DNA from: Cerrena zonata
Taxonomy: Eukaryota; Basidiomycota; Agaricomycetes; Polyporales; Cerrenaceae
Reading direction: 5' to 3'
NCBI GenBank assembly: GCA_038087015.1
Contig: JASBNA010000018.1
Coordinates: 656,414 to 720,413, forward strand
DNA length: 64,000 nucleotides
Shown one piece after another: positions 24,411 to 56,000 of the stretch. Each line of letters starts with the position of its first letter. Within the stretch, counting starts at the first letter, position 1. The notes below the pieces were generated by a model. The model was not told the DNA's origin. It saw nothing but the letters and a program-made list of their open reading frames with translations, and made no database searches. The position numbers and the translations under genes are program-made.

Positions 24411-26619
24411 TGTCTCCACACTCCGCTCAACTCAATGCCAGTCTATGGTCTCATGGACAAGCTCATATGCTCGTTAATGGGCAATAGGTTCCTGCTGGAC
24501 CAGGATCCATGCCTAACATGATAGCAAGCATGAAGTTTCACTGCCTCTTTATAGCGTGATGATATTAATACATTAATAACAGTCATACCCTCCCCCCAGT
24601 GGTCCTACCACTCCTGCTATAGGGAGTACCCATGCCCCTTCACTGGTATGTTTAATTTGAATGTTTGTTAGTTTTTCCTTACTCATTACATCGCTTCAGA
24701 TGCCATTTCCAGTCTATACTCCAGCCTATCTCCATCCTGTAAGTATCTATATCACCTACTGTGTATTAGTATACTAATCATCTGTATATCTCAGTCAGGC
24801 TTAAACTGCTGATGCCGGGCCATCACATGTTGCTTCTTCTTCCTCCCCTCTAATCAATCCTGCCCTTCTACCATTACCTCCCATGAAACTGGAGGAAACA
24901 GCTGGTATTCTTGGCCATCTACCCACCTCAAAAGTTGCAGGTGCACGTCAGGCTGTCGATGTTGAACCCATGCTGTCGCTCAAACAAAAGCAAGGGTGAA
25001 TGGCTGGTGCGACCAATTATACTGAGGATGAAGTCTATCAACTTCTTCTGCTTGCATATGAGAAACTGCCGGTTGGGGCCAAGAGGTGAGCTCTTATTAG
25101 TGGACGGTATCACTCATGAGCAAGTACATCTGGATTCACTGCTCGAAATGATAAAGTGATCAAAAATAAATTCAAACAGGTATGAATCTCCATCTCAATG
25201 CATGGATATATACTCACATACATATCAGCTTGTGAAGACGACTAAACCGACTGGGGTAGGTAAATGTCCACCTTACATTCAGTATGTAAAGGAAATCAAT
25301 AGCTTGATTCTCAAGAAAGCTGGCATGCATGAGCTGGATGATGATGAGATTGCTGATGTAATCTCTATCAACAGTGATAGTGATGCTAGTTCTGAGTCGA
25401 GCAGTGATGAGTCTGGTCATCTCTCTCATCCTGCATCTCGTCCTACCTCTCAACTCCACATGTCCTCCCAGAAACCACTAATAGCACGTGCTGTTAAAGT
25501 TGACCAGGGGCTTCCACTGGGCCAAAAACCAGATTCTAGGCCCAACAAAAAGATGGAAAATCGGTCATAAAATGTAATGATTTTTAAGCAACTTTTCTAG
25601 CCAAAAAAATGAAATGAAATTCAAAGTTCTTACAACATTTTGTAAATACAAGAATTCAACAAAAATTTGAGGAGATATGAAGCATAAAACTATGAAATTC
25701 CACTCATAACACAGTTTTTCTATCCCAAGAACTTAAAGTTTTATATTTATTTTTTGAATACATAGAATGTTGTAAGAACTTTGACTTTTATTTTATTTTA
25801 TTGGCTGGAAAAGTTGCTTGAAAATTATTACATTTTATGACCGATTTTCTACCTTTCTATTAGGCCTAAAATTAGATTTCTGGCCTAGTGTTCCTTCTGT
25901 CAATGCACCTGCCCGATGTCCTCATGTGGGTGCCGGTCTTAAAGTTCTCTCACAAATCTCGCAGAGCTTCACACCTGCTGCTCAGGCTGCTAGAGAGCAG
26001 GCTCGTTCTGAACGATCCCTTCAAATGATGCAACTCATCACACTCAATGATCAGCTCTGTGACTTGAACACCACAAATGCTAACCTACAGAATCAACTTA
26101 CCCTCTCTGAATATGCCTGTGAGGCTGCCGAAAGACGTGCTGACTGGGCAGAACAGCGTCTTGAGGTGATGCAGATGATGCAGACATTTGAAGGTTGTAG
26201 TTGTCACATTAGACCACATATCAATTTGCCCTATAGCCGCCACTATTTTCCACTCACTTGCCAATGTCAATGACAGCTCTCTCTCTCTCCCTCACCTCGC
26301 TATAACCAAGATTCCCAATACAATATAACTTATCGGGATGGAGGCTGTGCTGTCTATTTTGCAACACCAGAGGAGGCCAATAACCTGTTCCTGGATCGCA
26401 ACCTCAGCCCAACAACCTGTATTGAACGTTTTTCACTTACTCCTGTCCATCAACCCCATCATCGCCATGATCATTGCTCTCCTGATGTTATTCATCCCTA
26501 TGGTGATGTAGACCCCTCTCGTAGTCATTTATCTACACCTCACCATGGCCAGTCTGTTGTGTTAACTCCAGTCTGTACTGCTGCTGTAGGCTTGTATCAA
26601 CTACAGGGGCATTACTAGA
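24411..26619 (+). pseudogene. DUF6818/Myb-like DNA-binding protein gene, interrupted by a MITE
   Basis: The start ATG at 24411 reads MSPHSAQLNAS. Introns with good borders are visible (for example 25180-25228). A SANT/Myb-like helical region NYTEDEVYQLLLLAYEKLPV lies near 25013-25075, followed by KTTKPTG..CPP and the acidic-Ser stretch DDDEIADVISINSDSDASSE. This order is typical of proteins I know as DUF6818. A coiled coil (QMMQLITLNDQLCDL onward, 26020-26180) and a terminal YRDGGCAVYFATPEEANN block follow. Stops near 24484, 25086 and 25113, and a 376-bp foldback MITE at 25515, inactivate it. Removing the MITE and one TTC duplication leaves the reading frame in phase. It probably guided the neighbouring transposase to the element ends. 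Confidence 0.65.
25515..25890. mobile_element. Foldback MITE family I, copy a (376 bp)
   Basis: Begins CACTGGGCCAAAAACCAG and ends GGCCTAGTG, with inverted arms of about 130 bases meeting a short AT-rich centre. A TTC triplet flanks both sides (25512-25514 and 25891-25893). It interrupts the DUF6818-like gene without coding capacity of its own. Termini and 3-bp duplication fit the CACTA/CMC superfamily. Confidence 0.9.
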
Positions 26620-26627
26620 TGTGGTAG

Positions 26628-28050
26628 TTACACATTAATATACTCTGGTACTACATGGAAAGCAGAGACCCAATCCCGTTTTCTCTGTTCAGCAAATAAC
26701 ATACCTTCAAACCCATCCCAGACCTCTGACTGATGCCCCTCACACCAAATAGGTATATACACAGATGCTATTTGGTTGATATCAACACATCTAGTATGAA
26801 GTTGATGCAATTGTGCACAAGTTTCAATAATATCTGCACAATATCCCTGGTGAGCAATGTCAAGGAGATATGGAGATGACCGAATGATCCTTAAATACAT
26901 TGCATTCCCCATTCAGCAGTTTGACAATATGAAAGTAGTTGTCGATCAAAGGCAAGTAATTGGTCAAGTTTCCATATATCACCAGGTAGCCTCTGACCAG
27001 CTTTGATGGGTGCACAGATATGATTCTCGATAGCAGATGTACTGTGGGGGAAAGCTGTATCAGCCACAAGGTAATACCCATCAGGTGTGCAATCCCTGAG
27101 CTGGTCATATATTGGCATGACAATGCGTGAATTATGCTATGAGCCGGAACAGTTGAAATGACCTCCAATGAGTGTTTCTGTATTCATATCAAGGTCAGCC
27201 AGAAGTACAGAATTAGCAATTAATATAGCATATATTGTACCTTGAGCTCCAAATACAAACACAGAACTAACAAAGTGACCATGAAGCCACCCATTATAAG
27301 TGGCATTCTCAACTTTGATATCATCACACTTGACATGGAAGATTGAGGCCATCAATACTTCCAAAAGCACCCTGAAGGAGACTGTGGTGGGATATCACAA
27401 TCTCCGAGAGCTTTTCAAATTCGTTGTACTTGGTAACTTGGTCTGGCCAGGAGATGTTAGCTTGAGGGATATCCTTGAGTGTTTTAAGGAGAATGCGAAG
27501 TGAAAATGCAATGTAGCGATTAACAGTTGAAGGGATAAGTGCAAATATTTGTTGAAGAGTAATCTTGTGCATTATCAAAGAAAGCCAATAAAGTACAAGG
27601 CCGAGGCCTCCCGCTGCATCAAGAAATTGACAATGGGGGCGTGAGACACCAGCTAAGGAAATATTGGTGTGGTCAATTGTTGATTTTTCCCAACGTTGTT
27701 TGAACCCTGAACTTAATATGAGTTCAAAGGTTCTGATGTCGATCTCCATTGTGACAATGTATGCTCGATCATTATGACCCTCTTGGAGTATTTGCCATGA
27801 TGTAGCGGTATGTGGATTAGGCAGAAGATCAGGACGGCAAAGATAGCTTTGGTGTTGAGCTTTGGTGTGGAGCTCGAGCATCCACTCAAGCTTGATGCAC
27901 TTCAACTGATCCAACGGTGATGAGAGTGGCAGCAAAGAGATAAGTATCCTCCAGCTCGTCTTCTCTCTTATCTTCCTCATCCAGCTGCCTCATTAGCTTG
28001 ACTTGAAGGTTACGAGGGCTATTGGCCATTGGTATATATAAACAAACAGT
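26628..28050 (-). pseudogene. HARBI1-like DDE transposase gene, decayed
   Basis: The minus strand reads from MANSPRNLQVKLMRQLDEED (start near 28032) through several frames. Helical N-terminal sequence precedes GSIDGLNLP (first catalytic Asp, near 27345) and NATYNGWLHGHFVSSVFVFG (near 27290). Next come DGYYLVADTAFP (second Asp, near 27060) and LLSYCQTAEWGMQ (the catalytic Glu, near 26905). The end block is INQIASVYIPIW...WDGFEGMLFAEQRKRD. All three DDE residues are identifiable, but frames change near 27330, 27120 and 26890. Some of these may be introns and others true frameshifts. The usual APGSxHD-type block after the second motif reads IANSVLLAD. Confidence 0.75.
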
Positions 28051-28307
28051 GTGATCACAAGCCTCTAGCACTGTGACTCTAAAGAGATGACTATATGCAT
28101 ACTGGCAGCTGTCTTTTGAATATCCGCTCTACTTCACAAATAATAATTTCACATTCAGCGGGGGAATAAAATTTACCAGAGGCCCTAAATATATATTCAA
28201 GCGCCGTTTTTTTACTAACTACTCTCTCCAGATCCTACAGAAAGGCAGCCATTCACAGTTTTAAACTGCATATTTTATATAAAGATCTTTTTAATTCTTG
28301 TATCTAC

Positions 28308-28394
28308 AAAATGCTGTTAGATCTTTGAATTTTATTGTGTTTTTTTGACTGAAAAAGTTACTTGAAAATCATTATGTTTTATAACTGATTTTTC
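28308..28394. repeat. Fragment of foldback MITE family I
   Basis: Matches the inner part of the right arm of family I (TTGACTGAAAAAGTTACTTG, then CATTATGTTTTATAACTGAT) and stops at TTTTTCAC, where P copy 2 starts. The terminal 35 or so bases of the MITE are missing, which implies that P inserted into, or recombined with, this MITE. Confidence 0.75.
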
Positions 28395-31300
28395 ACTTGG
28401 GAAATAGGCCAATGCTGGCAAAACATGATTCCTTCAGTGACCTTTTTATCTCTGAAAATATCTATATTAGTTAATAGCCTAGACAGTAGTTATAGACAAA
28501 ATAAACCATAATATTGCTCTTAAGACATGATCATTATTTGCTAATAATAATCCCACCTTGAGAGGAGGCATATCCATTTGAGACTAAGGATGCCATTATA
28601 GAAAGGTAGTCTCTTGCAATAGCAGCCTACACTAGATATCAGATTATATTCAACTAAGAAAAAGCACAAAAAATAGGAAAAAAATCCTTCAAGATAATAT
28701 CCAGATTACTCACACCTCACTAGTGAACTACAGGCATACCTTTGAGGAGAAATTCTGTTAAGTTAAGATAGTTGTTGAATTCTTTGAGCTATAACTTGAG
28801 TAGATTGAAAGACAGGATATGTCTTTCATCTTCAGACTCATCATTATCAGATACCTTATATACTAACTTGGCCTTCTTAGTTGGCTACTTATACACTGTT
28901 AATACAGTCTAAGTCTTTTTGTTGTAGATATATTTGTAATATTTTATATACTAGAGAAAGAGAGGTCAAGATATATCATCTGTTTTTTAATAGAGAAATA
29001 CTTATAATAGATTCCATTAAGGTATATGCTTCTTTCTATAAATGAGCATCTTTTCTCTTTGGATAAAAAGCTGACATTACAACTGAGTGTCAGAAGCATT
29101 ATTAAGTGGAAAGATTGGTAATAACATATAAATTGATGCTACATATATATCAGAGTTATCTGTCCAATCATAATACTCTGCTATCTTATCAAGGCCCATC
29201 TAAAGAGCAATAATAAAATGAGAATATCTTATCTTCTCTACTTGAGCTGACCAGAGTCTATGAAGATATTTCAAGGCAGGAATAATAACATAAAGATATG
29301 ACTTGATCTCCTGCACTTTTATCTAAGACTAAGTTTTATGCTAATATATTAGCTTAAGCTTTTTATAATTATTTGGATCATATAATTTCTCAGTTAGTTT
29401 GCAGTGGTAAACTGAATATGTAGATTTAGTGATAAGAGAGGTAGGTTTATTTCTTAAACTATGAATTATAGTGATGTATTTTATAGCTAACTGAGACAAA
29501 GAGAAGAGATATTGCTATCTTGAGAATTAGATCAAAGCTGAGAATGTGAATTGATAATGGAAATAATATCTTGAATATGGATGTCAATAGGGTGCATGCA
29601 GTTAATAGTCAATAGAATGTATATGACTAATGATTGATCAAAACTCTAATTTGAGTCTGAGCTTAATGACTTACAAAGGCCAGTCTGAGATCAAAATCTA
29701 TCCAATAAGACCTTATAAGCTATACAGAAGGCTGGGCTTGGTCAGGCCTATAGTAGATCAGGCTTGAAGGTTTGAAGGTTTGAAAAGCCCAAGCATTAGC
29801 CTGCAGATCACTATCCTAAATATCACTTTTCAGATTTATCAAGTAGAAATTACAGGTTTGATCAAATAATAATACTATGATAGTGGAGGGTAAGAGATAG
29901 GAACAAATGAAAAGCACCAGTAAAAAGAGCTTTAAAAAATAAAGCATGGTAGCAACAGAAAGGAGGTGATTTGGATAGAAACTGGGAAAGATATAGGGCC
30001 AACAAGATATGTTTTATGGGAAAAAGCAGAATATGGGATGTTTTTGAGCCTTATTTGGGGTGTTGTAGATACCAGTAGATAGAGCTCAAAAAATGGAGTA
30101 TGGTAGCAAAGAAGAGCATGTGATTTGGATAGAAACTGGGGGAGCTATTGGGAAAAGAACATATGGGATGTATATTTTGATAGAACACTGCTATATATGG
30201 TATATTTCCGACATTACATAAGTGAAAATATAGGGTATGTTGTCAGATTTCACTTTGCCAATGAGCGCTTAACACCAGCTATTATATAATCACATCAGTC
30301 CATATATGGATGTATTACAAACAAATATAGATAGATAATGACATAGTTAACTAAGCGCTCTGGGCATTATTCATTAGGTGCCTAGTTAACTATGTCATTA
30401 TTTATTTATATTTGATTGTAATGCACCTATATATGGACTGATATACTTATATAATAGCTGATATTAAGCGCCTATAGGCAAAGTGAAATTTGAGAATATA
30501 AGTTATGTCCTTGCTTATGTAATGCAGAAAACATACCATATATGGTAGTGTTCTGCCGAAATATATCCTCCATATGTTCTTTTCCTATAGCTTCCCCAGT
30601 TTTTATCCAAACCACATGCTTCCTTTTGCTACCAGGCTCCATTTTCAGAGCTCTATCCAATGGTACTCATATTACCCCAAATAAGGTTCAAAAACATCCC
30701 ATATTCTGCCTTTTCCCATAAAACATATATTGTTTATCCTATATCTCTCCCAGTTTCTATCCAAATTACCTACTTTCTTTTGCTAATAGCCTCCTTTTCT
30801 CAACCTCTATCTATTGAGACTTTCTATATAATCATCAAGTGACCTCACATTGCTACTGCCACATTCACACTATTATCTAAGCAAATAAGTACAAATTTGA
30901 TTTGATCATTATTTAATCTCTCTCTCCCCTCATATCATTTGTTCAAGTGCAGATATTACTTGCACTTAGATAGTTACACTATTTTTTTCTATCCAAGACT
31001 GCATGTCTTAAGAAAAAAAATAGCCTTATGCCAACTCCTGGCAGATCTATTTGAGGTGAGTCAGTTTTACATATCTGTCAAGTTATGCAGTGTCTATATA
31101 GAGATATTACATAAGCAAGCACAGCCAAATTATGATGTTGTGAGCTAGGCATCTTAGGACACAACACTTAGAGACCTTGTTCACTACATCTGTTTTGGCT
31201 TATTGCATATAGACTAATATGCTTACATAATAGCTAAAATAAGCACCCCCTGCAAATTGAAATTTGAGAACAAGGTATGTTTTGATTATGTAATGCAGAG

Positions 31301-31976
31301 AACATACCATATATAGCAATTCTCTATCAAAATATAGACTTATATATTATTTTCCCTATAGCTCTCCTAATTTCTATCCAAACTATATACTTCTTGTAGC
31401 TACCAGGTATCATTTTCTGAGCTCTATCTGATGGTATATACACCACTTCCAATAATATTGAAAGTGAGTCTCTGTTTTACTTTTTCTCTAAAAACATATA
31501 TTGTTTAACATATCTTTCTGTCAATTCTGATCAGATCATCTTTTTTCTACTTCTACTATGCTCTATTTCTTAGGCTCTACTCATAAACATTATTTATACA
31601 ACAATTGAGTGAGGTTAGTGTGCTATAATTTCACATCTTTGCAATTACCAGAGCTTATAGGGCCAACCCCACTCTAGGGTTTAACAAGTACCCAGTTTTC
31701 CCACACTTAACCTAAATCTCAATTTTGCTTATATCTCAATATCCTCTCTATCAACTCATTTTGCTCTTAGAAGTTGACTTATAGTATAAACTTTGAGTTG
31801 TTCTATAGTCAAGTTTTGAGAGCAAAAGATGCAGTGGTTGTGAAGATATGAGATAAACAAAATTACCTCTAAACCCTAGACTAGGGCTAGGTAGTGGTTT
31901 CATGTTACGGTACAAGCGCCCCAGCAAAGTTCAGACAAGAAAAACAATACCTTCGTACCTCAAAAATCGTAATTTT
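28395..31976 (+). repeat. P repeat, copy 2
   Basis: Collinear with 19-3599. It includes the same foldback core (centre near 30365), the same small meaningless frames, and the end TTCGTACCTCA. It is flanked on the left by a MITE I fragment and on the right by a MITE IV fragment. Confidence 0.85.
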
Positions 31977-32190
31977 TTGACTATAAAAAATCAAAAAAGA
32001 TTCAGAATTGTTATAAAATCTTCTATAGCTAAAATTTGTGTAGAGATTCTGAATTCTATGTTTCATAAAATTCTCTAACACCTCACCTATCAGGCAATTA
32101 GCTTACTAATTTATTTTTAACTACCTTAGTAACTCACTGACAGTCTGATATAACTGATAAGCTACCTTTTAGATAAGTCTTAGGGTTACT
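31970..32190. repeat. Partial foldback MITE family IV
   Basis: Related to one arm of the element at 36790-37247 (AAAAAATCAAAAAAGATTCA, ATAAAATCTTCTATAGCTAA, GACAGTCTGATATAACTGAT). Only about half the element is present and the CACTG end is missing on the P side. Confidence 0.6.
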
Positions 32191-32690
32191 TTCTACCATA
32201 TTGCTTCTTCTATGCTTTACCTTGAACATTTCACACCCTGCCTTACCCATTAGGCACTCAACTCTAGGGTTTTCCTAGGATCTCCCTGAGAGAGAAAGAA
32301 TAACACTTATAACTCTAACTAAGGGTTGAGCATTTCATGTATATAAAGGTCAGTCTTAGAGCACGAGGTTCAAATACTGGCTAGGTTCAATCACTCAAAT
32401 CTCTAGCTTAATCTCAAGATCCCTCTATATTCTGAACAGTGTCTGACAGTATCTGTCTACCTCCTCTCTCACTACACCTACCTCTTTGAGGGCACAGAGA
32501 AGAGACTTCTTTTTAATTTCTTCACTGATGAAGGTTCTGTGACCAAGGCAAAATGCCACACCTGCTAGTATTTTTTTATCTCTTTATATATTTTTTGTAT
32601 GACTCTATTCGATTATGACTCAATAAATTTAATCTGAGTTTAACTGCAAAAAAAGGGTAGAAATCTAAGTACTGAAGTACTGATAATCCC
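32191..32690. other. Intergenic, no feature seen
   Basis: Moderately AT-rich unique sequence. A GGTTCAAATAC string at about 32368 resembles a pol III B box, but no A box or foldable tRNA surrounds it. No reading frame of interest. Confidence 0.4.
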
Positions 32691-32693
32691 TGA

Positions 32694-34386
32694 TCAATCT
32701 GATGCAATACAAAAATAAACCACTGCCTCTCTAGCAGCCAGAATGATAGCTACTGTTTCCTTTGAGTCTTCATAGTTGATATGTATGCCATCTGAGTAGC
32801 CGGAATGGAATGTGAGAGCATTCCCTAGTTCATAAAAGTTGAATACTCCATCACCAGCTTTATAAATGTTGGGGTATTTTTCTTAGATCAGTTTTCTGAC
32901 ACTGGAATAAAATCAGTTAACCTATCAGAAACATATAAATGAAGAGTGCATATCTATCTGTGGTCTTAAAGTGAGATGATAGCAAGGGACATAAGGTTTC
33001 TTCTATCTTGGGAATGACTAGCTTTCCTAACAGTGGATCATAGCCTAAATTTTAGGCTTTATAAAAGTAAGATAAAAGTTTATAAAAACTCTCTTATAAA
33101 ATATAATTTTTAGCACCCAAAAATTATCAAAAAATATATAATTTGAGCAGAATTTGATAACTTATAAAAACCTATACAAATTCTGTCTTTTATATTCAAT
33201 TTTCAAACTTTAAAAATGTTAAATTTCTATTTATTTTCTGTTAGAGAAAATCACACTATGCAAAATTTAAATTTTTGATACATTTTTATTTTTTTCAAAA
33301 TCCTAATATAATTGTATATATCAAAATAAAGTTTTATGAATATAAAAGCTAAAGAAAAGACATAGATAACTGTTCTTAGTAAATCTTGGTCTCTATCAGT
33401 CATACTATCTAATATATATAGTTGGATATGCAATACTAATTATTCTGCCAAATTATCAGTTTAAATTTCAAATCATCTTTGAAAAAATAAATATATATCA
33501 AAATTTTGAATTTTGTAAAGTAAACTTTTCTCTAATAAAAAATATATTAAAATTGAGCTTTTGTGAACTGTAAAAATTGAATAAAAAAGTATAAATTTGC
33601 ACAGGTTTTTATGATTCATCAAATTCTGTTAAAATTTTGTATTTTTTTGATAATTTTTGGGTGCTGAAAATCATATTTTGTAAGAGAGTTTTAATAAAAT
33701 TTTACCTTGCCTTTATGAAGCCCAACATTTGAGCTATGATTTAGTATAAGGTACCTATAAGAGAGTGGAAGGCCTTAGTCGATTCTACATCTTGATTTTT
33801 AGAGTTCCCAATAAGGAATATATCTTTGCTATATTTTGACTATCCACTTACATGGAAGGTGGAGGACATCTTGATGTCTGAGCAGACAACTTTGTATACT
33901 GGGTTTCCTCCAGCAGTGGGTTTAGTATCTATGAATCCCTTAAATGACACTTTTAGGATCCTCTGCATGTCTGCATTGATGACATTGTCATATCTGGTGA
34001 CAACATACTCAGGCAGCTCATGTATATTGCTGGATATGAGGACCAGGAATCATCTTTCATTGGGCATATATGGAAGCTCAGTTATACTCAGATTTGGGAA
34101 CTGGCACTCTGTCAGAACTGCCTCTATATCTTGGTCCCTGCCTGACCATGTCAAGTATAAGTGGATGTTGTGCTGAATGTGATAGATAACTACCAGAAAA
34201 AAAAACAGAACCACTTTAGTTATCTACCATTTAATAAAATAAGACAAGTACATATCTGTGTTGAAGTCAAGTGTATCTTGCAGAGTAATACTCTTTTTGG
34301 CCAGTTCTTCCAACCATTTCTTCTAGCATTTCAACTGTTTTGCTGCTGATTGTGTTCTCTTCTTTCACTGTTTGTCTAAAAAACAT
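32694..34386 (-). pseudogene. Unknown protein gene split by a foldback MITE
   Basis: Reading on the minus strand, a start at 34386 gives MFFRQTVKEENTISSKTVEM. After a probable intron, 34188-33845 reads LYLTWSGRDQDIEAVLTECQ and, after one TGA, NVINADMQRILKVSFKGFID up to FHV and a GTAAGT donor. The MITE at 33031-33746 follows. Beyond it come LGKLVIPKIEETLCPLLSSH and, near 32870-32697, GDGVFNFYELGNALTFHSGY...ETVAIILAAREAVVYF ending in TGA at 32694. Stops are few and protein character is strong, so the gene died relatively recently. I do not recognise the family. Confidence 0.5.
33031..33746. mobile_element. Foldback MITE family II, copy a (716 bp)
   Basis: Left end CAGTGGATCATAGCC, right end GAGCTATGATTTAGTA, with inverted arms of about 280 bases and a TAA duplication at 33028-33030 and 33747-33749. 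The centre carries a short AT-rich non-coding segment (the frame 33251-33433 is spurious). It splits the minus-strand pseudogene. Confidence 0.9.
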
Positions 34387-34615: not shown

Positions 34616-35103
34616 CACTAGATATAATATAGAATTCTTAAGTATAAAAGAGCAAGAAAAGATTTGAGAGAACATCCCAGCTTTTTTACTAGACTTTGCA
34701 CTTTAAAAAATCAAAAAAGATTCAGAATAGTTGCAAAATCTTTTGCAGTTAAAAAAGATAAAAAGATTCAGAATCTTTAGTCTCATAAAATTCTCTATCA
34801 CTGAACAAACTAGTCTATCAGCCTATGAATCAACTTATTAACTTGGTAACTTACTTACTAACAGTCTAATATGGTTATAAGTCAACTAGTAAGTAGGTCA
34901 ATAGGCCTATAGATTAAGTGATAGAAGTTTTTCTGAGACCATAGATTCTGAATCTTTTTATCTTTTTTAACTGCAAAAGATTTTGCAACTATTCTGAATC
35001 TTTTTTGATTTTTTAAAGTGCAAAGTCTAGTAAAAAAGCTGGGATGTTCTCTCAAATCTTTTCTTGCTCTTTTATACTTAAAAATTCTATATTATACCTA
35101 GTG
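34616..35103. mobile_element. Foldback MITE family III (488 bp)
   Basis: Begins CACTAGATATAATATAGAAT and ends ATTCTATATTATACCTAGTG. Arms of about 230 bases are near-perfect reverse complements (for example AGCTTTTTTACTAGACTTTG against CAAAGTCTAGTAAAAAAGCT). No matching 3-bp flank is visible (GAA on the left, CCA on the right). Confidence 0.85.
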
Positions 35104-36711: not shown

Positions 36712-36789
36712 CAAGAAACCAGTAAGATTGAAAATAAAAAAATAAAAAGAAAGCCAGAAGGATGAGAAAGAGAGCAAGAGAGAGAGCAA

Positions 36790-37247
36790 CACTGGGTATT
36801 AGTAAGATTTTAATAAGATTTAGCTAGATATTTCAATTTTGTAACTGTAAAAAATTAAAAAAGATTCAAAATTGTTATAAAATCGTTTATAGCTAAAATT
36901 TGTGTAAAGAGTCTGAATTCTATATTTTATAAAATCCTCTGACACATTACTTAGCAGCCTATTGACTTATCTAAGAGGTAGCTTATCAGTTATATTAGAC
37001 TGTCAGTAAGTTACTAAGGTAGTTAAAAAGTAAATTAGTAAGCTAATTACCTGATAGATGAGGTATTAGAGAACTTTATAAAACATAAAATTTAGAATAT
37101 TTATACAAATTTTAGCTATAAAGGATTTTATAACAATTCTGAATCCTTTTTGATTTTTTACAGTTACAAAATTGAAATATCTAGCTAAATCTTATTAAAA
37201 TCCTACTACACTTTTTAGCATTATAAAATCCTGACTAATACCCAATG
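36790..37247. mobile_element. Foldback MITE family IV (458 bp)
   Basis: Left end CACTGGGTATTAGTAAGATT, right end GACTAATACCCAATG, nearly palindromic throughout. The triplet CAA is duplicated at 36787-36789 and 37248-37250. Confidence 0.88.
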
Positions 37248-37319: not shown

Positions 37320-37694
37320 CACTGGGACAGTAACCAGATTCTAGACTCAATAAAAAGGTGAAAAATCATTCAGAAAATGTAATGGTTTTTAAGTAACTTT
37401 CTAATCTAAAAAACAAAATAAAATTCAGAGTTTTAATAGTATTCTATAAATACAAGAATTAAATAAAATCTCTATATAATATGAAGCTTTAAAACTACAA
37501 ATTTCCACTAAAAACACATCTTTCTTATAATAAAAACTTAAAGTTTTAGATTTATTTTTTGTATATATAGAATGTTGTAAGAACTTTATATTTTATTATA
37601 TTTTTTTGACTGGAAAGTTACTTGAAAATTATTACATTTTATGAATGATTTTTCACCTTTTTATTGGGCCTAGAATCTGGTTTCTGACCTAATG
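37320..37694. mobile_element. Foldback MITE family I, copy b (375 bp)
   Basis: Left end CACTGGGACAGTAACCAG, right end GGTTTCTGACCTAATG. Similar throughout to copies at 25515 and 38763. A target duplication is not evident (ATAG against ATAT). Confidence 0.85.
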
Positions 37695-38762: not shown

Positions 38763-39136
38763 CACTGGGCCAGAAACCAGATTCTAGGCCCAATAAAAAG
38801 GTAAAAAATTAATCGTAAAATGTAATGATTTTCAAATAACTTTTCAATCAATAAAATAAAATAAAACTCAAAGTTCTGATAGCATTTTGTAAATACAAGA
38901 ATTAAATAAAATCTTTATAGAATATGGAGCTTAAAACTGTGAATTCCCACTGAAGACATATTTTTTTTATAATTAAAAGGTAAAGTTTTAGATTTATTTT
39001 TTGCATACACAAAATATTGCAAGAACTTTGAATTTTATTTTATTTTATTGACTAAAAAGTTACTTAAAAATTATTACATTTTATGACTAATTTTCGGCCT
39101 TTTTATTGGGCCTAGAATCTAGTTTCCAGCGCAGTA
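38763..39136. mobile_element. Foldback MITE family I, copy c (374 bp)
   Basis: Left end CACTGGGCCAGAAACCAG, right end TAGTTTCCAGCGCAGTA. TAT is duplicated at 38760-38762 and 39137-39139. The uninserted site survives in arm B around 53343-53345 (single ATA on that strand), which proves both boundaries. Confidence 0.93.
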
Positions 39137-39736
39137 TATAAAAAAGATAGAGAATAGACTATGTGAGTGGTTATATAAGCAAGTAAAAACTACACTACAG
39201 AAATAGTCATTGTATGGTAAGATTAAGTATTAAACTACAGGTATATACTCTATATCTTTGTTATATCTCTTATGTTGGCATATTTGCCAGCATGCAGACT
39301 TACATCCTGCACAGAGCCTAAGTCAGAAATAAATAAATAGCAAGCTACATAGACATTGAGAGGTTGGTGTAACAGGTGCATCATCAGCTATTTCCTCTCC
39401 TACCATTGGCATTTCATAAGACATCCTTACAGATAACTCCATAGTAGAGAATGATAGATGGGAGTACCAAGCACCAAATCTTCAGAAGGGGATGTGCAAG
39501 AAATAAAACGAAATAGAAAAAAATATTATCAGCCTTCTTAGATATGGAGTGAGACACTATATTAAGCAGTGTTAGTTATACTAAAATTGTATAGTGTACA
39601 AAGAGACAATCCTTAAAAATAAAAGATATGACCTCGAAACAATGCCAGGTTAGTGATGTAGTTAGCATTAAGAACACTGACTGTACCAATACTAAAAAAT
39701 AAGCAACAAATATAGGCAAAGTTAAAAATATTATCT

Positions 39737-46680: not shown

Positions 46681-46764
46681 CACTGGTGCAGCTTGAACCT
46701 AGGGCTCTGCCACGCCTCCATGCACAAATTAACATATTCAACCAACTGAGCTATGCACACTTGC
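46681..46764 (-). other. tRNA-like sequence (possible SINE head)
   Basis: On the minus strand a pol III A box (TAGCTCAGTTGG) and B box (GGTTCAAGC) occur in the right order, about 54 bases apart. That is longer than in an intron-less tRNA. D- and T-stems do not pair well, so it is not a convincing functional tRNA. A longer T run follows downstream near 46574. The same sequence lies at 57918-58001. Confidence 0.55.
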
Positions 46765-46811
46765 TATATTTCAGTGATACCTGCCCCATATACCCTTTCT
46801 TAGATAAGATA

Positions 46812-47280: not shown

Positions 47281-49997
47281 AGTTTTAGATTTGTGCCATC
47301 ACAGACTGGTGCGCCATTCACCAGACTTCAAAGGTTGTACTCCTCCAGCCAAAACCTTGGCAAGATGTTTCTGAAACCATGCCTCACACTCTTTCGTCCA
47401 ATAATTTGTATTGAGGCCACAAATATTTCATACAGTGGGTAGAGGCCACCAGGACCTCAGTGCCATCTGGTTTCTAATATCTAGACTAGCGTATTAGTAA
47501 AGTAAATAATAATACTATTAATTTTGTACGTACCAGTGGCATCCACATACATGCTGCAAATAACCTCGATCTTGTCATCAGTCAGGATATTCTCCATCCC
47601 TCTACCACCTGGTGTCTCAAATGTAAAAATGGTTGAGATGTGGTCATTGAGACTGCCACTAATACAATTGGGTATTGGTACCCCCATGCCCAATGATTCC
47701 AATGCAAGATGCCAGAAAATGCCACCTTGACAAAAAGCCATTTTTACCAATGAAGGGTGCCAGAATAAATTGAGATGTTGGTGCACATAAGCATGGTAAT
47801 CGTCTATCGAGTAGATGTAGTTGGCAGCCTGCAAAGTGGTAGAGAGAGAAAGGATTGCAGGAGTACGACAAGAAAGACTCTGATATGGCCAAATGAGCAT
47901 AAATGGAATCCCTCGTTCTACCAGTTTCCTGCCAATGTCTTCAAGCTTGGGTCCCCATCCCTCTCGAAGGACCTGCTTGTAGATGATGATGGTGTCAACG
48001 CCAATGAATGAGTCACCCACTCTGTAATCTTTCTCTAAGATAAACCAGAGCATGCGCTTGTGTTCATCCCCCTGCTTAAGCTGCATACCTCTTAGCAGAG
48101 GTGGCTTTAGTGCTGCCATGTGGAATGGGCTTGGAACAAAGACCTTATGCTTTTTATGGTTTATAAACTATTCAGCAGTCCAAAAAATATCTGACAGAGC
48201 AGGAGTGACCTTGTCGATATTGTCAAAGCGAATGGCATATGAAAAGGTCCACAAGACATCACGAAAATGGGGGCTGAGAGTTGCCTCCTCCTCCTCTATC
48301 ATCTGTTCAACAAAGGGAAGGAGGGCTGCTTGCACAGTGTACAATTTAGGAACCTGGTATAGGCCCTCGATCTTAGCAGACTCATTGAGTCCATACTGAG
48401 ATTTGAGAGTGCGCTAAAGGGTGGGGAGTTGACTGATATCTCATGAGAGTTGGAAGTCATCTCCCTGCATCACAGCCTCAGCAATAGGTTGCATCAATGA
48501 TAGTGTGGCATCTGGTGCAAATGCCTCAGGGGGCTCATCGTGCACAATGTTGATAGCAGGATGGAGAGGTTGAAGGCTCTGATAGGTCTCATTCTCTTCC
48601 TTATAGTTGTAGTTGTATTCATCAACATCCTCATGGTGTGTAGTGTTAGCATAGGAATAGAGTGGTTGGAGCTCACAGTAGGTATCGTCGTCGTCATCAT
48701 TATCATCTACAAATGGCACTGCTGTAGGATCAAGGTCCTTGCAGAGGTCAAAGCAATCCAACTATGGATCATAGATGATTTGACCACCTGCAAATTTCTC
48801 AAATTCATTGTCAGCCTCAGCTTCTGTGACCCTTCTTTGAAAATGGTATGGCAGGTATGGTACTGGTTCCCATACATAGATATGAGACTTGAGGCAAAGC
48901 CATGTCCCAAGGCTTGATTTGTGAGCCTTGATCCTCTGCTCTCACTGCCGACCAGCAGATGGAAACTCATTCTATTGATGTTCATTCTGCTCTTTCTGAT
49001 GTCGAGAGAGAAAATCCCAAATGGTCTCTGAGGGATGTTGATACGAGAGAGGGTCATACTTGACATCTGCAATGTCGTTGAAGTAGCTAAGAACCTTCAT
49101 TTCTGTCAACTTCTTGAGCGTATCCACACTAGGGAAGAGGTCCTTGGCTAGTCGGTATCTTGGCTTGAAGTTCTTGGGGAAATAGTACCAAATAGGTACA
49201 TTGCAGCACTCAAAAATGAAGGATTGGTTTGCCATACAAAATTGCCACTCCTGCACCATGTTGATAAGCATCCCTCAATGTAGGGTAATTGATGAGAAAT
49301 CAGTCAAAAAAGGAGAGTGTCATAGGCTGTTGATGAAAAAACATGGGATGCCATAGTCAGTCAACATTTTGACCCATTGCTGAGGTTCACCCTGAGCCCT
49401 ATTGTAATCAATACAGCCAAAAAACGTGGCGACTCAGCAAGCCATCGCTAGAAATTCCCAGCGAGCAGAATATATTCTGCCTAGAGCATCCTGACGTGTA
49501 GGTGCAGGCTTGTGATATAACATATGATACAGTCTTCGTGGCGGCTTGCAATGAATAGGAATCCATTGCTGCCTAGCCTGTTTCAGTGCCATGTAAACAT
49601 GGTGGAGGTGATTTTTGAGCTCGGCCCACTTTTTTACAAATGACTCTCGAAGTCGGTAGCTTTGCCCAACCTGCTCAATCAAAGGCCGGTATCGCCCCTC
49701 GCGTCTGATAGTGAATGCATCACTGAGGCACTGGAGGATGGGGTTGGTGTGAAGGTTGAGATTGCAAGGTCAAAATGAGAGATAAAAGTAATCATCTCGA
49801 CCCCACGAAGCTGACAGATATTTGGGATCGCCCGGGTTGACGTTGGGAATGTAGGATCACAGTGCCAGCTCTATCGGCCAGTTTTCATGAACCTCAAGGT
49901 AATCATCACCCTGGTCGGGATATGAGCAAGGTGCATTTCACATTGTCACTTGGAGGCCTCAATCGGTGAGGAAAGTCTTTTGTACAAGATCAACCAT
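47281..49997 (-). pseudogene. Inner, broken copy of the telomere-proximal gene
   Basis: Full-length minus-strand relative of the gene at 58477-61160, with a start ATG at 49997 (MVDLVQKTFLTD then TGA). Surviving frames are 49682-49434, 49271-48972, 48761-48441 and 48119-47481. The single intron is at the same place, with GTACGT...TAG borders. Stops and frameshifts are scattered. At several positions CG in the intact copy is TG or CA here, including a TGA in place of the Arg codon of SLRW near the C terminus. It sits beside its own copy of the upstream block. Confidence 0.85.
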
Positions 49998-50639
49998 TGT
50001 AATGTCTATGAAACAAAATGTCAAAGCTGTAAGACTTGGGGAGGTCAAGTGAAAAGTGAACCTGAATGGTGTGGGGATTGCCGGCAAGGTTGGTGGTATT
50101 GAGAAAGTTATGAAACAGAAGCTAAACAGAATAAAGTGAGAATGAATAGTTGGGGGCATGTGAATATACACATACAAGACCTGATACAAAGATACCTTTA
50201 GCAGCAACAAGTGAAACAGGATGAGGTGTTGTTGGTGATGAGAGGGATATTGACAGCTGAAGAACAATGCATCAAGTAGACAGAAACACAAGAGGTTGTG
50301 GATGTTGATTGTCAACAATGCCAAGGTGGAAGAAGGTAGCAGAGGGCAAAGAAGGCTCTGAGTATAGGCAAGTGATAGCAAATAGTTAGAGGAGTATCCT
50401 CAAGCTACCAGAGTCGACGATGAGGGAGTTGAGGGCCAAAGGATGTTACAAGATAGTGAGAGGAGTATCCTCAGACTACTGGAATCAATGACAAGAGATG
50501 CAGGCGGCAGGCTGCAGTGGCAATGAGCAGAAAGAAGATGAGAAAGACTTGAAAGTGAGCAGCATAGAGAAGTCGAGATAATCAAAGGAGTATCTTTTGA
50601 TTAACAGGGTTGTGGTGGTCGGTGAAAAGAAAGAAGTAA
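49998..50639. other. Upstream flank of the inner gene copy, with micro-palindromes
   Basis: Probable 5' flank of the broken gene, distantly similar to 61161-61500. It holds three diverged 29-nt micro-palindromes at about 50383, 50452 and 50577 (AGAGGAGTATCCTC core). No other gene. Confidence 0.5.
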
Positions 50640-50837
50640 AGAAATACCCTAAGTCTCGGTCCAAAAAATGATCAACTAACTCTAAAAGGTTATAATTTCT
50701 AGACGCCCTGGAGACATCTGACATCACATGACCTATGTGATTGAGTATTCTCTTGTGGACAACTGTCATTCATCTTTCTTGTCATCATGCCATGTTGTCC
50801 AAGGTCCCATCTCAGACAACACTGACATAGCCACACT

Positions 50838-51550
50838 TACTGGATCATAGCCCAAATTTTAGGCTTTATAAAAGTCAGGTAAAATTTTATAAAAATTCTC
50901 TTACAAAATATACTTTTAGCATTATAAAATTGTCAAAAAATGCTGAATTGTAGCAGAATTTGATAAATCATAAAAACCTATGTAAATTCAGACTTTTATA
51001 TTCAATTTTTAGACTTTAAAAATGTTGAATTTTCATATATTTTTTATTAGAGAAAAATTCACTTTGCAAAATTCAAAATTTTGATACACTTTTGATTCTC
51101 CAAAAGTAATGTAAAATTTAAACTGCTAATTTGGAAAGATCAGTGATATTGCATACTTAAATATCTCTATCAGACAGTATAATTGACAGAGACTATGATT
51201 TATCAACAATAGTGATCTATATCTTCTCTTTAGGCTCTCTATTTATAAAACTTTATTTTCATATGTACAATTATATTATGATTTTTAGAGAATCAAAAGT
51301 ATATTAAAATTTTGAATTTTGTATAGTAAATTTTTCTCTCATAAAAAAATATGAAAATTCAACATTTTGAAAGTTTAAAAATTGAATACAAAAGTCTAAA
51401 TTTATATAGGTTTTTATCATTTATCAAATTTTGCTGCAATTGAGCATTTTCTGACAATTTTATAATGCTAAAAAGTATATTTTGTAAGAGAATTTTTATA
51501 AAATTTTACCTGACTTTTATAAAGCCTAAAATTTGGGCTACGATCTAATG
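50838..51550. mobile_element. Foldback MITE family II, copy b (713 bp)
   Basis: Left end TACTGGATCATAGCCC, right end GGGCTACGATCTAATG, arms about 280 bases. ACT is duplicated at 50835-50837 and 51551-51553. The empty site is in arm A at 41582-41584 (AGT on the + strand). Confidence 0.95.
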
Positions 51551-52226
51551 ACTTGCTCTTGTCTGTAGTTGACATTTCCAACGTTGGCTCGCTTTTGTAT
51601 AGTTGATGTTCCCAACGCTGCCTACATTGCCTGGTTTGTAGCCTATCGACACTGTCTATCCCAGTCTCAATGTTGCTGCTGTTTTTCTCAGCTTGACACC
51701 ATTGCTCTCATTTCAATGTGGCTTCTATTGAATGGCCGGTTCTCAATCAACATTAATAAGTATGTCATATTACCATACACTTCATCTTCTTTTATCTTCC
51801 AACTTCTTAAATGTCTCTTCTCGAGTGTTTTCTATAGGTAATATTTCTAACTTTGCCTGTACTTGTTGTTTATTCTTTAGTATTGGCACAATCGGTGTTT
51901 TTAACGCTGACTATACCGCTAACCTGGTGTTGTTTTGAGGTTATATCTTTTATTTTTAAAGGTTGTCTCTCCGTTTTCTTTTAACAGCATACAACTTTAG
52001 CATAACTAATGCTGCTTGATATAGCATCCCACTTCATATCCAAGAAGGCCGACAATGGATAGATGTCTGCAGAAGAAAAAGAAGAATGCTCATCCTCAGG
52101 AGCAGGTAGTTGAGTCTCTGTTGAGCTATGGCACTCCCATTGAACCTAGTACATCTTTTTCTACTTCATTTTATTTCCTGCATGTCCCCTTTTGGAGGTT
52201 TGGTGCTCAGTACTGCTGGCTATCAT

Positions 52227-52941
52227 CACTGGACCATAGCCTGAATTTTGGGCTTCATAAAAGTAAAGTAAAATCTTATAAAAAGTCTCTTACAAAACAT
52301 AATTTTCAGATCCAAAAAATGATCTAAAAATTCTAAATTGCAGCAGAAATTGATGAATCATAAAAACCTGTGCAAATTTAGACTTTTGTATCCACTTTTT
52401 GGAGTTCAAAAAAGCTCAATTTCTATTCTTTTTTTACTGGGGAAAAGTTTAGTATGCAAAATTCAACATTTTGATACACTTGTATTTTTTCAAAAATTAT
52501 AGTATAATTATAAATATTAAAATAAAGTTTCATAAATAGACAACCTAAAGAGAAAATATAGACTACTATTCTTAGTACATTATAGTCTCTGTCAATAAGA
52601 CTATTTGATGGAGATACTTAGGTATACAATACTATGCATCTTGCCAATTTAGCAGTTTAAATTTTATATCAGTTTTGGAAAAATAAATGTGTGTCAAAAC
52701 TTTGAATTTTGTATTCCAAATTTTGCTCTAACAACAAATGTATCAAAATTGAGCCTTTTTGAACTCTAAAAACTGGAGACAAAAGTCAGAATTTATATAG
52801 GTTCTTGTGATTCATCAAATTCTGCTGCAATTCTGAATTTTTACATCATTTTTTGGGTTTAAAAAGTATATTTTGTAAGAGACTTTTAATAAAATTTTAC
52901 TTTACTTTTATAGAGCCCGAAATTTGGGCTACAGTCCAGTG
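52227..52941. mobile_element. Foldback MITE family II, copy c (715 bp)
   Basis: Left end CACTGGACCATAGCCTG, right end GGGCTACAGTCCAGTG. CAT is duplicated at 52224-52226 and 52942-52944. The empty site is in arm A at 39451-39453 (ATG on the + strand). Confidence 0.95.
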
Positions 52942-53542
52942 CATTCTCTACTATGGTGTTATCTGCAAGGACGTCTTGTGAAATGCCAATGGTAGGAGAG
53001 GAAATAGCTGATAGTGTACCTGTTATACTGATCTCTTGATATCCATGTAGCTTGCTGTTCATTTATTTCTCTTTGACATATTCTTAATGTTCAGAATGAT
53101 GCTAATGGTCCAAGATGTTTTCTAGTCCCTTTAACTCCCTTAGAAGACCTTCCATGGTACTTGGGCCCTGTGCAGGACGTGAGTTTGCATGCTGGCAAAT
53201 ATGCCGACACGACAGGTACGACAAAGATATGGAATATGCACCTGTAGTTTAATGCTTAAACTTACCGTATGACAACTATTCCTGTAGTGTAGTTCTTACT
53301 TACTTATGTAACCACTCATATAGTTTACTCTCAATCTTTTTTATAGTTACGAGTTTATGTCCTCTATTACTATTGTATCTGTGTACTTAGCTTGGTCTTT
53401 TCTTGTGCTTGCTTGCTTCTATAATTTTGTTCTATTTTAGTAATCTAGATGCTGACATCCTTGCTTATGTAATCCTGTTGAAATATATATAGAAGATATA
53501 TTTAACCTTTTCAGGTCATCAACTACTTTCAGAACCACCAGC

Positions 53543-54370
53543 ATGCCACCAAGTGAACAAGTGTTGAATCACCTTGCCTTGGCCTTTGCAACAATGGCCT
53601 ACCAGGAGACCATGGATAGTATGAGCAGTTGAGTCGATGACGCTTTTCAGAAGTTGAGCACTCAGGCTGCATCCTTGGAGAAGCTGGTGGCCATAATGCC
53701 GAAGGTCAACATCATGTCTACCGACATCCATGAATTAAGGAAGAGCGTTGCCAGTCTCAAACTCAATGTCGACACCATGGCCTCCCAGGGCAGCAGCAAC
53801 TATGCCATCATGTCCCATATTCAGGGTATCGCGAATGCCATTGTCGAGCACACTGCTAATATCGCGAGGGCTCAGACCAGGCTGGATGCATATGAAGAAG
53901 AGATGTGGTCGTTATTTGCATTAGTACACAAGAAGTTGAATACTCTTGTTGAGGACACCGGTCTCCTCCATCGTATGATGTGAGTCTATTTTATTTTATT
54001 AGAAATAATTTATTTTTATTTTTATTTTTATTTAGTGAAGACAAGGCTAAGAAGGAGAAAGCCCTCAAGGCAATGCACCTGAGGAACAGCATCATAAGGG
54101 GCAGAGTCCTCAAAGGACCCACTGGGCCGCTTCCTGGAGGCTTTGATATGGTGAAAAGTATCTTAGCGGCTGGTAAGTTGTCCACATCATAGTGTTGTAC
54201 TGATACTAACTGTACTGTTGTTTGTATACACAGGTGAGAACACCATCAATGCTTTAGGGGCTCACCTTGGCAGAGTCCCGGGTTGGGATGAGGACCTCAC
54301 CTTGCAGAATCGCAAGGATCTGACCCTGGTCTACTTGATCAAGGGTTATGAGAAAAAGTTGGGCTTCTAG
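53543..54370 (+). pseudogene. Coiled-coil unknown protein, three exons, one premature stop
   Basis: Exons 53543-53979, 54036-54172 and 54234-54370 join in frame into 236 codons. The introns are 56 and 61 bp (GTGAGT...TAG and GTAAGT...CAG). Exon 1 begins MPPSEQVLNHLALAFATMAY and carries heptad-like helices (STQAASLEKLVAIMPKVNIM through IVEHTANIARAQTRLDAYEE). Exon 2 has a basic DKAKKEKALKAMHLRNS stretch. Exon 3 ends LVYLIKGYEKKLGF. Codon 30 is TGA (53630-53632) where arm A has CAA; both derive simply from CGA. A further upstream exon is possible because an acceptor precedes the ATG near 53515. Function unknown. It may be only one mutation from open. Confidence 0.6.
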
Positions 54371-54819
54371 GCTCAGATGACAGACACTTTTGTAATCTTT
54401 TCGTTTTTTTTTCACATGTATTCACTGTCATCTGTCCTGTCTGCCTCCTCCTTTTTGCCAATCCTTGCTGCTTTTTGCCCTTCGTCATCCATATTGGTCT
54501 CCACAATCTGTTGTTGTAACATGTATAGTGTATCTTGAATTTTAACATGATGCTACTCTGTAACAAGGCCATTGTGTGGGAAATTTGTACTGAATGAATG
54601 AGACATCAGCTAAAAAAAAGTGGAAGAGAACCGTGCTGCACCATGGTTCTTGTTATTCATAGCAAGGCAACCTGGCTCTTGCTACCCTATTGGGGCTATG
54701 CATTTCCATGAAGTTATGACATGTTTCATTATAGCTGGCAATATATTATATATTTTTACAGGTATATGTTCTTCTGAGATGAGTGATAGGATATACAAGA
54801 TGAGAAGCAAGAGATAAGA
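54371..54819. other. Intergenic, no feature seen
   Basis: Downstream flank of the coiled-coil gene. No protein-like frame beyond short low-quality ones, no repeat with the rest of the window that I can identify. Confidence 0.4.
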
Positions 54820-55775
54820 GACAATAGAAGGAAGATCCTTCTATTATCCATTGGGAGTTGAGGAATGAGAGCTGAGGAATGAGAGATAGCAGAAGGAATA
54901 TCCTTCAGTTATCAAGAGCATCATGAGTTGAGGAATGAGAACCCCATTACAAGATGAGAATTACGAGACAAAAGATAATAGAAGAAGGATCCTTCAGTTA
55001 CTCACTCAAGAGCTCGAAGTTGAAGGGATGAGGCTTGAGGGTTATAAGACGAGAGATAACCGAAGGAATATCCTTCGGTTACCAGGTTGAGAGGTTGGGA
55101 ATGTCGAGAGGGAGAGATGAGAGATGAGGAGGATAACCGAGTGAATATCCTTCAGTTACCATGTTGAAGAGTGAGTCAGTTGGGGAACAAGAAAGGCAGA
55201 GAAAGATGCTCAGAGAAAGATACTCAGAGAAAGTTGAAGGCTTGGACCATGTAAGATAGATGCTTTGGAGAAATCCGAATAAGATTGACTTGAAGTTCAA
55301 GTTGTTCGCAGTTCAGTTCCTTCTGCCATAGTGGCCTATAGTCATCAGCCACATGGGTGTTTGGTGCACAATATTGCTTAAGGTTGAACCTCGAGCAATG
55401 CTAACGTGCCCCGTAAATACCTCCTGGTCCTCTCTCACTCCATTATCATGTCTTGTAGCTAGTGTTCCTAATACCTGCTACACTGTTTGCTCCCTTGGTC
55501 AACTATCCTCAACGTCTCTTCGTCTTGACAATTGTTCCCTGCTGAGCATCTCTAGCCTGGGAACTTGCATCCTCAGGCTACTGGAGTCGATGAACAAGAG
55601 ATGCGAGTGATCAGAGGGCTAAGTATCTCATGAGAAATATGGAGTAGTCAAGATAATCAAAGGAGTATCCTTCGATTACTGGGGAGAGGCTGTCATAGAT
55701 GAGAGGATGAGGGTAGCGGCAAAACTGAGGCAAAATTGAGGAGAAAGATAACAGAAGGAAGATCCTTCAGTTACT
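54820..55775 (+). repeat. Cluster of 29-nt micro-palindromes
   Basis: Near-palindromic 29-mers occur at about 54820, 54885, 54974, 55055, 55132, 55652 and 55747. The left arm is GATAACNGAAGG, the centre A(A/G)(T/G) and the right arm ATCCTTCNGTTACC. The unit at 55055-55083 is a near-perfect palindrome. Arms vary together: ACAATAGAAGG faces CCTTCTATTATC, and ATAATCAAAGG faces CCTTCGATTACT. GAGTTGAGGAATGAGAG-type spacers lie between units. More copies flank the telomere-proximal gene. Confidence 0.8.
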
Positions 55776-55795
55776 GATGGAGGCGCACTGGGTGT

Positions 55796-56000
55796 AATAC
55801 CAAATTTTATAGCATAAAAAAGCAAGGAAAGATTTGAGAAAAAGTCCCAGCTTTTTTACTAGACTTTGCACTCTAAAAAATCAAAAAAGATTCAGAATAG
55901 TTGTAAAATCTTTTGTAGCTAAAGAAGATGAACGAAGACTGAATGCTTGGTCTCATAAAATTCTCTATCGCTAAACAAACCAGTCTATTAGCCTATGTTT
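55796..56000. repeat. One-armed fragment of foldback MITE family III
   Basis: Starts CACTGGGTGTAATACCAAAT and follows the left arm of the 34616 element (AGCTTTTTTACTAGACTTTG) before losing similarity after about 55995. Confidence 0.75.

What the first reader, a model, noticed from the sequence alone, without database searches (positions are those of the whole stretch)
25515..56000. Four foldback MITE families with CACTR ends and 3-bp target duplications
Families I (25515, 37320, 38763), II (33031, 50838, 52227), III (34616, partial 55796) and IV (36790, partial 31970) are almost entirely inverted repeat. They start CACTG or CACTA (or one change away) and, in six cases, are flanked by clean triplets: TTC, TAT, TAA, ACT, CAT and CAA. 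Unselective 3-bp duplications with CACTR ends point to the CACTA/CMC superfamily. Foldback MITEs of that kind with arms up to 280 bases are not something I know to be described.
Basis: partly seen in the sequence, partly recalled or inferred. Interest (0 to 1): 0.8.

Follow-up and report, generated by a model that had tools for sequence, protein, structure and literature searches.

The report
Hairpin-shaped CACTA mini-transposons in a fungus
Short, hairpin-shaped jumping DNA pieces are scattered in many copies through the genome of a wood-rotting fungus, and they carry the hallmarks of the CACTA transposon group, one family sharing its end with a CACTA-type transposase element; the type is known in plants, but arms this long are unusual.

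Summary
The window lies in a 55.5-Mb genome; one window ORF is 98% identical to a Cerrena zonata protein (Polyporales). Families I-IV are real inverted-repeat elements. I, II and III each have at least 40 places genome-wide (scoring limit), typically with CACTGG/CCAGTG ends. In 126 unique copies with recognisable ends, 93 have an exact 3-bp duplication (2.9 expected); lengths 2, 4 and 5-9 bp give 7, 2 and 0. Family II scores 57 of 58. Twelve of 91 insertions tested have an ungapped empty site among the sequences held. Two further foldbacks appeared: a family-I-ended 1,359-bp element with 97.9% identical 680-bp arms, and a 1,260-bp 'family V', perfect where sampled.

The CACTA/CMC call is supported; the Plavaka hint is not. 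A family III arm forms one end of two colinear copies of a long element carrying a tnp2-like gene (108 of 120 listed homologues bear Pfam Transposase_21). Its far end was not reached, and no transposase was tied to I, II or V. Small, long-armed CACTA elements with 3-bp duplications are already described (pvCACTA1 of bean), so this is a new variant of a known kind, with longer arms and a partial link to a transposase.

The parts
25515..25890 (.). Family I foldback element, TSD TTC/TTC
   Evidence: arms 151 nt, 81%; flanks
37320..37694 (.). Family I foldback element, no clean TSD (TAG/ATA)
   Evidence: arms 149 nt, 82%; flanks
38763..39136 (.). Family I foldback element, TSD TAT/TAT, right end changed from the family consensus
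   Evidence: arms 144 nt, 83%; genome-wide query; flanks
28251..28396 (.). Family I fragment, cut where a 3.6-kb repeat begins
   Evidence: BLAST
33031..33746 (.). Family II foldback element, both ends mutated, TSD TAA/TAA
50838..51550 (.). Family II (subfamily IIb) foldback element, TSD ACT/ACT
   Evidence: arms in pieces, 87-99%; flanks
52227..52941 (.). Family II foldback element, 715 bp, TSD CAT/CAT; ungapped paralogous empty site at 39331-39524
34616..35103 (.). Family III foldback element, 488 bp; its arms match the 5' terminus of a tnp2-like element elsewhere in the genome
   Evidence: arms 190 nt, 95%; fold z -33
55786..55997 (.). Truncated family III element
36790..37216 (.). Family IV foldback element; interior about 70% alike to family III; right end decayed
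   Evidence: arms 170 nt, 85%; genome search
31971..32179 (.). Family IV fragment at the end of a 3.6-kb repeat
   Evidence: 90% to IV 175-384

Best explanation
These are non-autonomous foldback MITEs of the CACTA (EnSpm, tnp2-type) superfamily in an Agaricomycete. Shown: discrete units with CACTGG..CCAGTG ends, exact 3-bp target duplications of little sequence preference, many copies, clean empty sites. Partly shown: the family III arm is the 5' end of a long element that carries a tnp2-like gene. Inferred: a CACTA transposase acting in trans binds the shared termini, cuts the element out and inserts it at a 3-bp staggered cut; families I, II and V are moved by tnp2 relatives not yet paired with them. 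Inferred with less certainty: the hairpins arose by inverted duplication of a single CACTA terminus, because both arms of III match the same terminal 148-176 bp of the tnp2-like element and the centre of III does not.
For: TSD length: exact 3 bp in 93 of 126 (2.9 expected); 2 bp 7 (9.5 expected), 4 bp 2 (0.66), 5-9 bp 0; II 45 of 45, IIb 12 of 13, I 19 of 35, III 17 of 33. The 93 exact TSDs comprise 37 triplets. Ends, in copies selected for recognisable ends: CACTGG in 51 of 72 (I), 88 of 92 (II), 27 of 28 (IIb), 49 of 66 (III), CACTAG in 13, 1, 1, 9; the unselected listing looks the same. Empty sites: 12 of 91 joined flanks match another place without a gap across the junction; a 66-bp insertion with family-III-like ends in C80 has an ATT duplication and an empty site in the C26 paralogue. 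Copy number: 246 exact family II termini, 0 for the reversed pattern; 40 scored places each for I and III. Transposase link: the III terminus opens colinear copies at C80 and C26 (95-99% at four probes) whose outer flanks do not match over the 34-35 bp read in C26. Both carry an open 284-aa frame, 92% identical. The read-through frame finds 1093 homologues; 108 of the 120 listed carry PF02992 Transposase_21. In the same genome one 656-aa frame at C7 holds a Transposase_21 hit and, in the same reading frame, a match to the 284-aa query.
Against: The far end of the tnp2-like element was not reached by C26:498700, 7.9 kb from its start, so its own TSD is untested; an exact or one-mismatch III terminus was not found there by pattern search. 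The stretch next to the III arm in both copies resembles, to my eye and by recall, a LINE RNase H region, so the unit may be a composite. No transposase gene was found between family I, II or V termini. Sixteen of 33 family III and 16 of 35 family I copies lack an exact triplet. Pfam reports only DUF4218 below its cut-off, and no Transposase_21, on the C80 fragment itself. If the autonomous element has long TIRs at both ends, internal deletion would explain the arms without inverted duplication.
Confidence: 0.86

Rival explanations
1. The MITEs are moved by Plavaka transposases, another CMC-like lineage that is abundant in this genome.
For: 147 Plavaka match pieces, four near-identical copies with the same open frame; 2- or 3-bp TSDs occur in PlavakaB (PMC12730594, passages).
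Against: The 5 kb read around one Plavaka gene (L110) show no CACTR inverted pair and no significant MITE match; published Plavaka ends are TGT..ACA or CATCA..TGATG. Only one Plavaka locus was read, and its ends were not located.
Confidence: 0.07
2. PIF/Harbinger elements, which also make 3-bp duplications, move them.
For: 3-bp duplications; the window ORF 27324-27989 looks Harbinger-like by recall, which Pfam does not confirm.
Against: TSDs are not restricted to TWA: 37 different triplets among 93; the termini are CACTGG, whereas GGC-type ends are expected (recalled).
Confidence: 0.02
3. Each family has its own history: III and IV are CACTA tnp2 derivatives, while I, II and V use a different, unidentified transposase with look-alike CACTG ends.
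For: Only the III terminus was tied to a tnp2-like gene; beyond CACTGG the ends of I and II differ from III.
Against: Same first six bases, same TSD length and same foldback build in I, II, III and V; several other tnp2-like genes exist that could serve.
Confidence: 0.1
4. The foldback shape is kept, at least in part, by conversion between the two arms of one copy, rather than only inherited from the founding event.
For: After duplicates were removed, arms of one copy are more alike than arms of different copies in all four sets (p 0.0002 each, the floor of the test); in IIb 0.925 against 0.879, the own right arm being the closest right arm in 12 of 14. Between nearest copies, changes shared by both arms of a copy number 52 of 257 differing columns in IIb and 67 of 655 in III, 15 transversions in each.
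Against: In I and II the excess is 0.9% and 0.6%, and concerted changes are only 45 of 730 and 32 of 698; in all four sets most changes lie in one arm only. Over all sets the own arm is closest in 22 of 129. Subfamilies founded separately would give the same signal.
Confidence: 0.15

Closest known systems
pvCACTA1 of common bean (PMC4938662; passages seen)
   Same: Small, non-coding, high-copy CACTA elements with long TIRs (145-158 bp) and 3-bp TSDs.
   Different: Plant; TSDs are WWW; no autonomous partner found there. Here TSDs are less selective, arms reach about 680 bp, and one family shares its terminus with a tnp2-like element.
Fungal EnSpm elements of rusts (Kojima 2025, PMC12730594; abstract and passages seen)
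   Same: CAC..GTG ends and 3-bp TSDs in Basidiomycota.
   Different: Those are coding elements with a TET/JBP gene; here non-coding foldbacks in a polypore.
CACTA MITEs of the ant Camponotus floridanus (Jiang 2016; title seen in a reference list only)
   Same: MITEs derived from CACTA transposons, by the title.
   Different: Animal host; arm length and structure not seen by me.
Foldback-type elements Galileo and Tetris (Drosophila) and Tm1 (nematodes) (search listing only)
   Same: Named for, or compared with, foldback elements with long inverted-repeat ends.
   Different: Galileo is classed with the P element and Tm1 as Mutator/Foldback in those listings; here CACTR ends and 3-bp TSDs.

Membership tests
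CACTA/EnSpm (CMC) | CACTR (CAC..GTG) termini | tested here: met
   CACTGG or CACTAG in 64 of 72, 89 of 92, 28 of 28 and 58 of 66 ends of I, II, IIb, III, in copies chosen for recognisable ends; family V
CACTA/EnSpm (CMC) | Exact 3-bp TSD without strict sequence | tested here: met
   93 of 126, 37 triplets
CACTA/EnSpm (CMC) | tnp2/Transposase_21 gene inside an element with the same termini | tested here: inconclusive
   Met at one end for family III; far end not reached; I, II and V without a partner
CACTA/EnSpm (CMC) | Arrays of short subterminal repeats (recalled criterion) | tested here: inconclusive
   8-mer repeats such as AAAAGATT within one III half, not tested against chance
Plavaka | TGT..ACA or CATCA..TGATG ends | tested here: not met
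   Ends are CACTGG/CACTAG; reference ends from PMC12730594, passages
PIF/Harbinger | TWA target duplication (recalled criterion) | tested here: not met
   37 different triplets among 93 exact TSDs
MITE | Short, TIRs, TSD, uniform length, many copies | tested here: met
   Length modes 374, 715, 488 bp; copies; TSDs
MITE | Trans-mobilised by an autonomous relative | not testable with these tools
   needs a transposition assay

The most novel reading that the evidence does not exclude
A CACTA system in this fungus repeatedly turns one of its own ends into a complete hairpin (arms up to 680 bp, almost no loop) by inverted duplication, with some later homogenising of the two arms, and such full-length palindromes are still moving: family V copies have perfect arms wherever sampled, identical sequence in the 42 terminal bases compared between two copies, and exact 3-bp duplications.
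Probability: 0.3. Interest if true: 0.65.

Novelty: new variant of a known kind. Interest (0 to 1): 0.45.

Why it matters
CACTA is the least represented MITE superfamily in a survey of 207 plant genomes (PMC12550479, passages), and the long-TIR case that I found described, pvCACTA1, has no known partner element. Here one fungal genome holds several such families side by side, from 66 bp to 1.36 kb, with clean empty sites and a candidate partner that shares the family III end. That makes it possible to test how foldback MITEs are born (deletion or one-ended inverted duplication) and how a cut-and-paste transposase handles substrates that are complete hairpins.

Tried and rejected
Plavaka as partner: read 5 kb of one copy (L110, C62); no CACTR inverted pair, no significant MITE match, ends not located. 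C1:2854640-2857680 looked like a 2.9-kb family II element; it is two IIb-type MITEs on either side of sequence that looks like a KDZ transposase (recalled, not searched). C11:459102 looked like the end of a long element inside a Plavaka-like gene; it is a 715-bp MITE. C80:120151-125496 first looked like one 5.35-kb element with short TIRs; comparison with C26 showed that its 'left end' is a 66-bp insertion, so I dropped that reading. The tnp2 relatives at C7 and C8 show no family I-IV match in the 501 bp read at each. C80:111372 as the missing far end: it is another family III MITE with a different flank. Rfam: no hit in the window at gathering score.

Literature: the titles and abstract starts listed show no fungal CACTA foldback family. 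Most listed papers were not opened, and the library lacks most subscription journals.

Mended on checking: my first arm comparison held two IIb copies and one family I copy twice, partly in opposite orientation. The corrected run and a test of concerted changes replace it, and I raised the odds of the arm-conversion rival from 0.10 to 0.15. Rows dropped before counts: of 172 full-length matches 17 without recognisable ends within 6 bp and 29 duplicates were left out (of the window's copies only 25515, 34616 and 52227 are in the 126). In one search, four queries whose only matches were their own locus were not counted as empty sites, and two more matched only with gaps.
Full report
Setting. The window is G000:C18:656414-720413 of a 55.5-Mb, 171-contig genome. 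An 824-aa window ORF (58710-61184, minus) is 98% identical to a Cerrena zonata protein, so the source is probably Cerrena zonata or a close relative, a polypore (lineage).

Observation. The 488-bp element at 34616 folds at -193 kcal/mol against a mean of -42 for 100 shuffles, z -33. Left ends are CACTGG or CACTAG, or one change off; several right ends are more decayed. Five of the six named triplets were verified (TTC, TAT, TAA, ACT, CAT); the sixth, CAA, is present only on the left of 36790.

Genome-wide copies. Family II (52227-52941) has 42 full-length places listed at 89-93% (the window copy itself 100%), and four of the related IIb at 79-80%. Its exact 16-base terminus occurs 246 times, the reversed control 0 times. 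Families III and I each filled the 40-place scoring limit, one of the III places being partial, so these counts are lower bounds. Family IV has few close copies, and its interior is about 70% alike to III. Lengths are tight: modes 374, 715 and 488 bp for I, II and III.

Target duplications. From the loci held I took 172 full-length matches, dropped 17 without recognisable ends and 29 duplicates, and kept 126. An exact 3-bp duplication is present in 93; 2.9 are expected by pairing left and right flanks of different copies. Other lengths stay near chance: 2 bp 7 (9.5 expected), 4 bp 2 (0.66), 5-9 bp none. By family: II 45 of 45, IIb 12 of 13, I 19 of 35, III 17 of 33. Of the misses, 11 of 16 in family I are one base off, but only 3 of 16 in III; age or misplaced ends may explain them. 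The 93 triplets are of 37 kinds; G is rare at the first place (8) and C at the last (5), a weak symmetrical preference.

Empty sites. Of 91 insertions with a triplet and enough flank, 12 have an ungapped match elsewhere in the sequences held that spans the junction with one triplet only, at 77-98% identity. Two more match with gaps, and 4 matched only their own locus and were not counted. Three of the 12 lie in one copy (L044) of the window's 824-aa ORF family, one (L094) lies inside a IIb-type MITE, and the window's own 52227 element has its empty counterpart at 39331-39524.

Larger and smaller foldbacks. A family-I-ended element at C10 (L112) is 1,359 bp with 97.9% arm identity over 680 aligned columns and TTG duplications. 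A further set with ends CACTGGGTATAATCC stands as pairs 1,258-1,260 bp apart on C21, C26, C51, C62 and C68. On C21 the outer 102 bases of the two arms are identical, and 46 bases on each side of the short centre are perfectly complementary. C21 and C68 share their first 42 bases, and their duplications are CTA/CTA and AGT/AGT. I call it family V; most of its interior was not read. At the small end, a 66-bp insertion with family-III-like ends and an ATT duplication sits in C80 and is absent from the C26 paralogue.

Partner element. C80 and C26 hold colinear copies of a long unit: four probes match at 95-99% in order. Both begin with a family III arm of about 176 bp, and the 34-35 bp read outside it in C26 do not match C80, as expected of an element end. 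Downstream lies an open 284-aa frame, 92% identical between the two. It has 440 homologues and a weak DUF4218 match (E 3.5e-4, below the curated cut-off); 9 of 22 aligned members match DUF4218 at E up to 1. The longer read-through frame finds 1093 homologues; of the 120 listed, mostly 770-930 aa, 108 carry PF02992 Transposase_21. Pfam does not find Transposase_21 on the C80 frame itself. In the same genome a 656-aa frame at C7 holds a Transposase_21 hit followed, in the same reading frame, by a match to the 284-aa query. A second possible ORF follows in C26. The far end was not reached, and no exact or one-mismatch III terminus was listed where it should lie in C26, so this element's own duplication is untested. 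Next to the III arm both copies hold a stretch that resembles a LINE RNase H region (recalled), so a composite or a captured fragment is possible.

Origin of the arms. Both arms of III match the same terminal 148-176 bp of this element (83-88%); its centre does not. That suggests inverted duplication of one terminus, but an autonomous element with long TIRs at both ends would look the same until its far end is read. The arms then evolve mostly independently: between nearest copies most differing columns change in one arm only. Yet concerted changes are notable in IIb (52 of 257) and III (67 of 655), fewer in I (45 of 730) and II (32 of 698). In IIb the own right arm is the closest one in 12 of 14 copies. 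Some arm-to-arm conversion, or separately founded subfamilies, may be at work.

Comparison. Fungal EnSpm elements have CAC..GTG ends and 3-bp TSDs, whereas Plavaka ends are TGT..ACA or CATCA..TGATG (PMC12730594, passages). pvCACTA1 of bean is the nearest known kind: small, abundant, TIRs 145-158 bp, TSD 3 bp, no autonomous partner found (PMC4938662, passages). In 207 plant genomes CACTA is the least represented MITE superfamily (PMC12550479, passages). The listings of my searches show no fungal CACTA foldback family, in a library that lacks many journals and with most listed papers unopened.

Verdict. Real, and correctly placed in CACTA/CMC, with tnp2 rather than Plavaka as the likely driver for family III and, by analogy, the rest. 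It is a new variant of a known kind: longer and more complete hairpins, in a fungus, with a partial link to a transposase.

Noticed in passing
window 20-3603 and 28397-31980: A 3.58-kb direct repeat, 99.6% identical, holding an 836-bp imperfect palindrome without CACTR ends; the second copy abuts a family I fragment on one side and a family IV fragment on the other.
   Followed up: partly
window 9501-10406: A 906-bp imperfect palindrome related to those at 1573 and 29950 (79% over 1.1 kb), without CACTR ends: another foldback group.
   Followed up: no
window 58710-61184 (-): An 824-aa ORF without a Pfam match; its best hit is an 18-member cluster named from Cerrena zonata (98%); another genomic copy (L044) carries three MITE insertions.
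   Followed up: partly
G000 C73:36421-38150: A family II MITE (C73:36859-37572, TSD TAG) splits a Plavaka transposase match at profile position 135.
   Followed up: partly
G000, family II places: Clustering: 16 of the 46 listed full-length family II/IIb places lie within 2 kb of another, two pairs only 11 and 17 bp apart.
   Followed up: no
G000 C7:692245, C87:22537, C9:1093684, C26:556524, C20:72038, C19:89101, C8:328414: A second tnp2-like set (51-53% to the C80 frame) with 8-10 stops in about 255 codons, partly in pairs with the same stop counts.
   Followed up: partly
families I-III, differences between copies: Transition excess (Ti/Tv 3.5 in I, 2.6 in II, 2.5 in III, 1.9 in IIb), as expected from cytosine deamination or a RIP-like process.
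   Followed up: no
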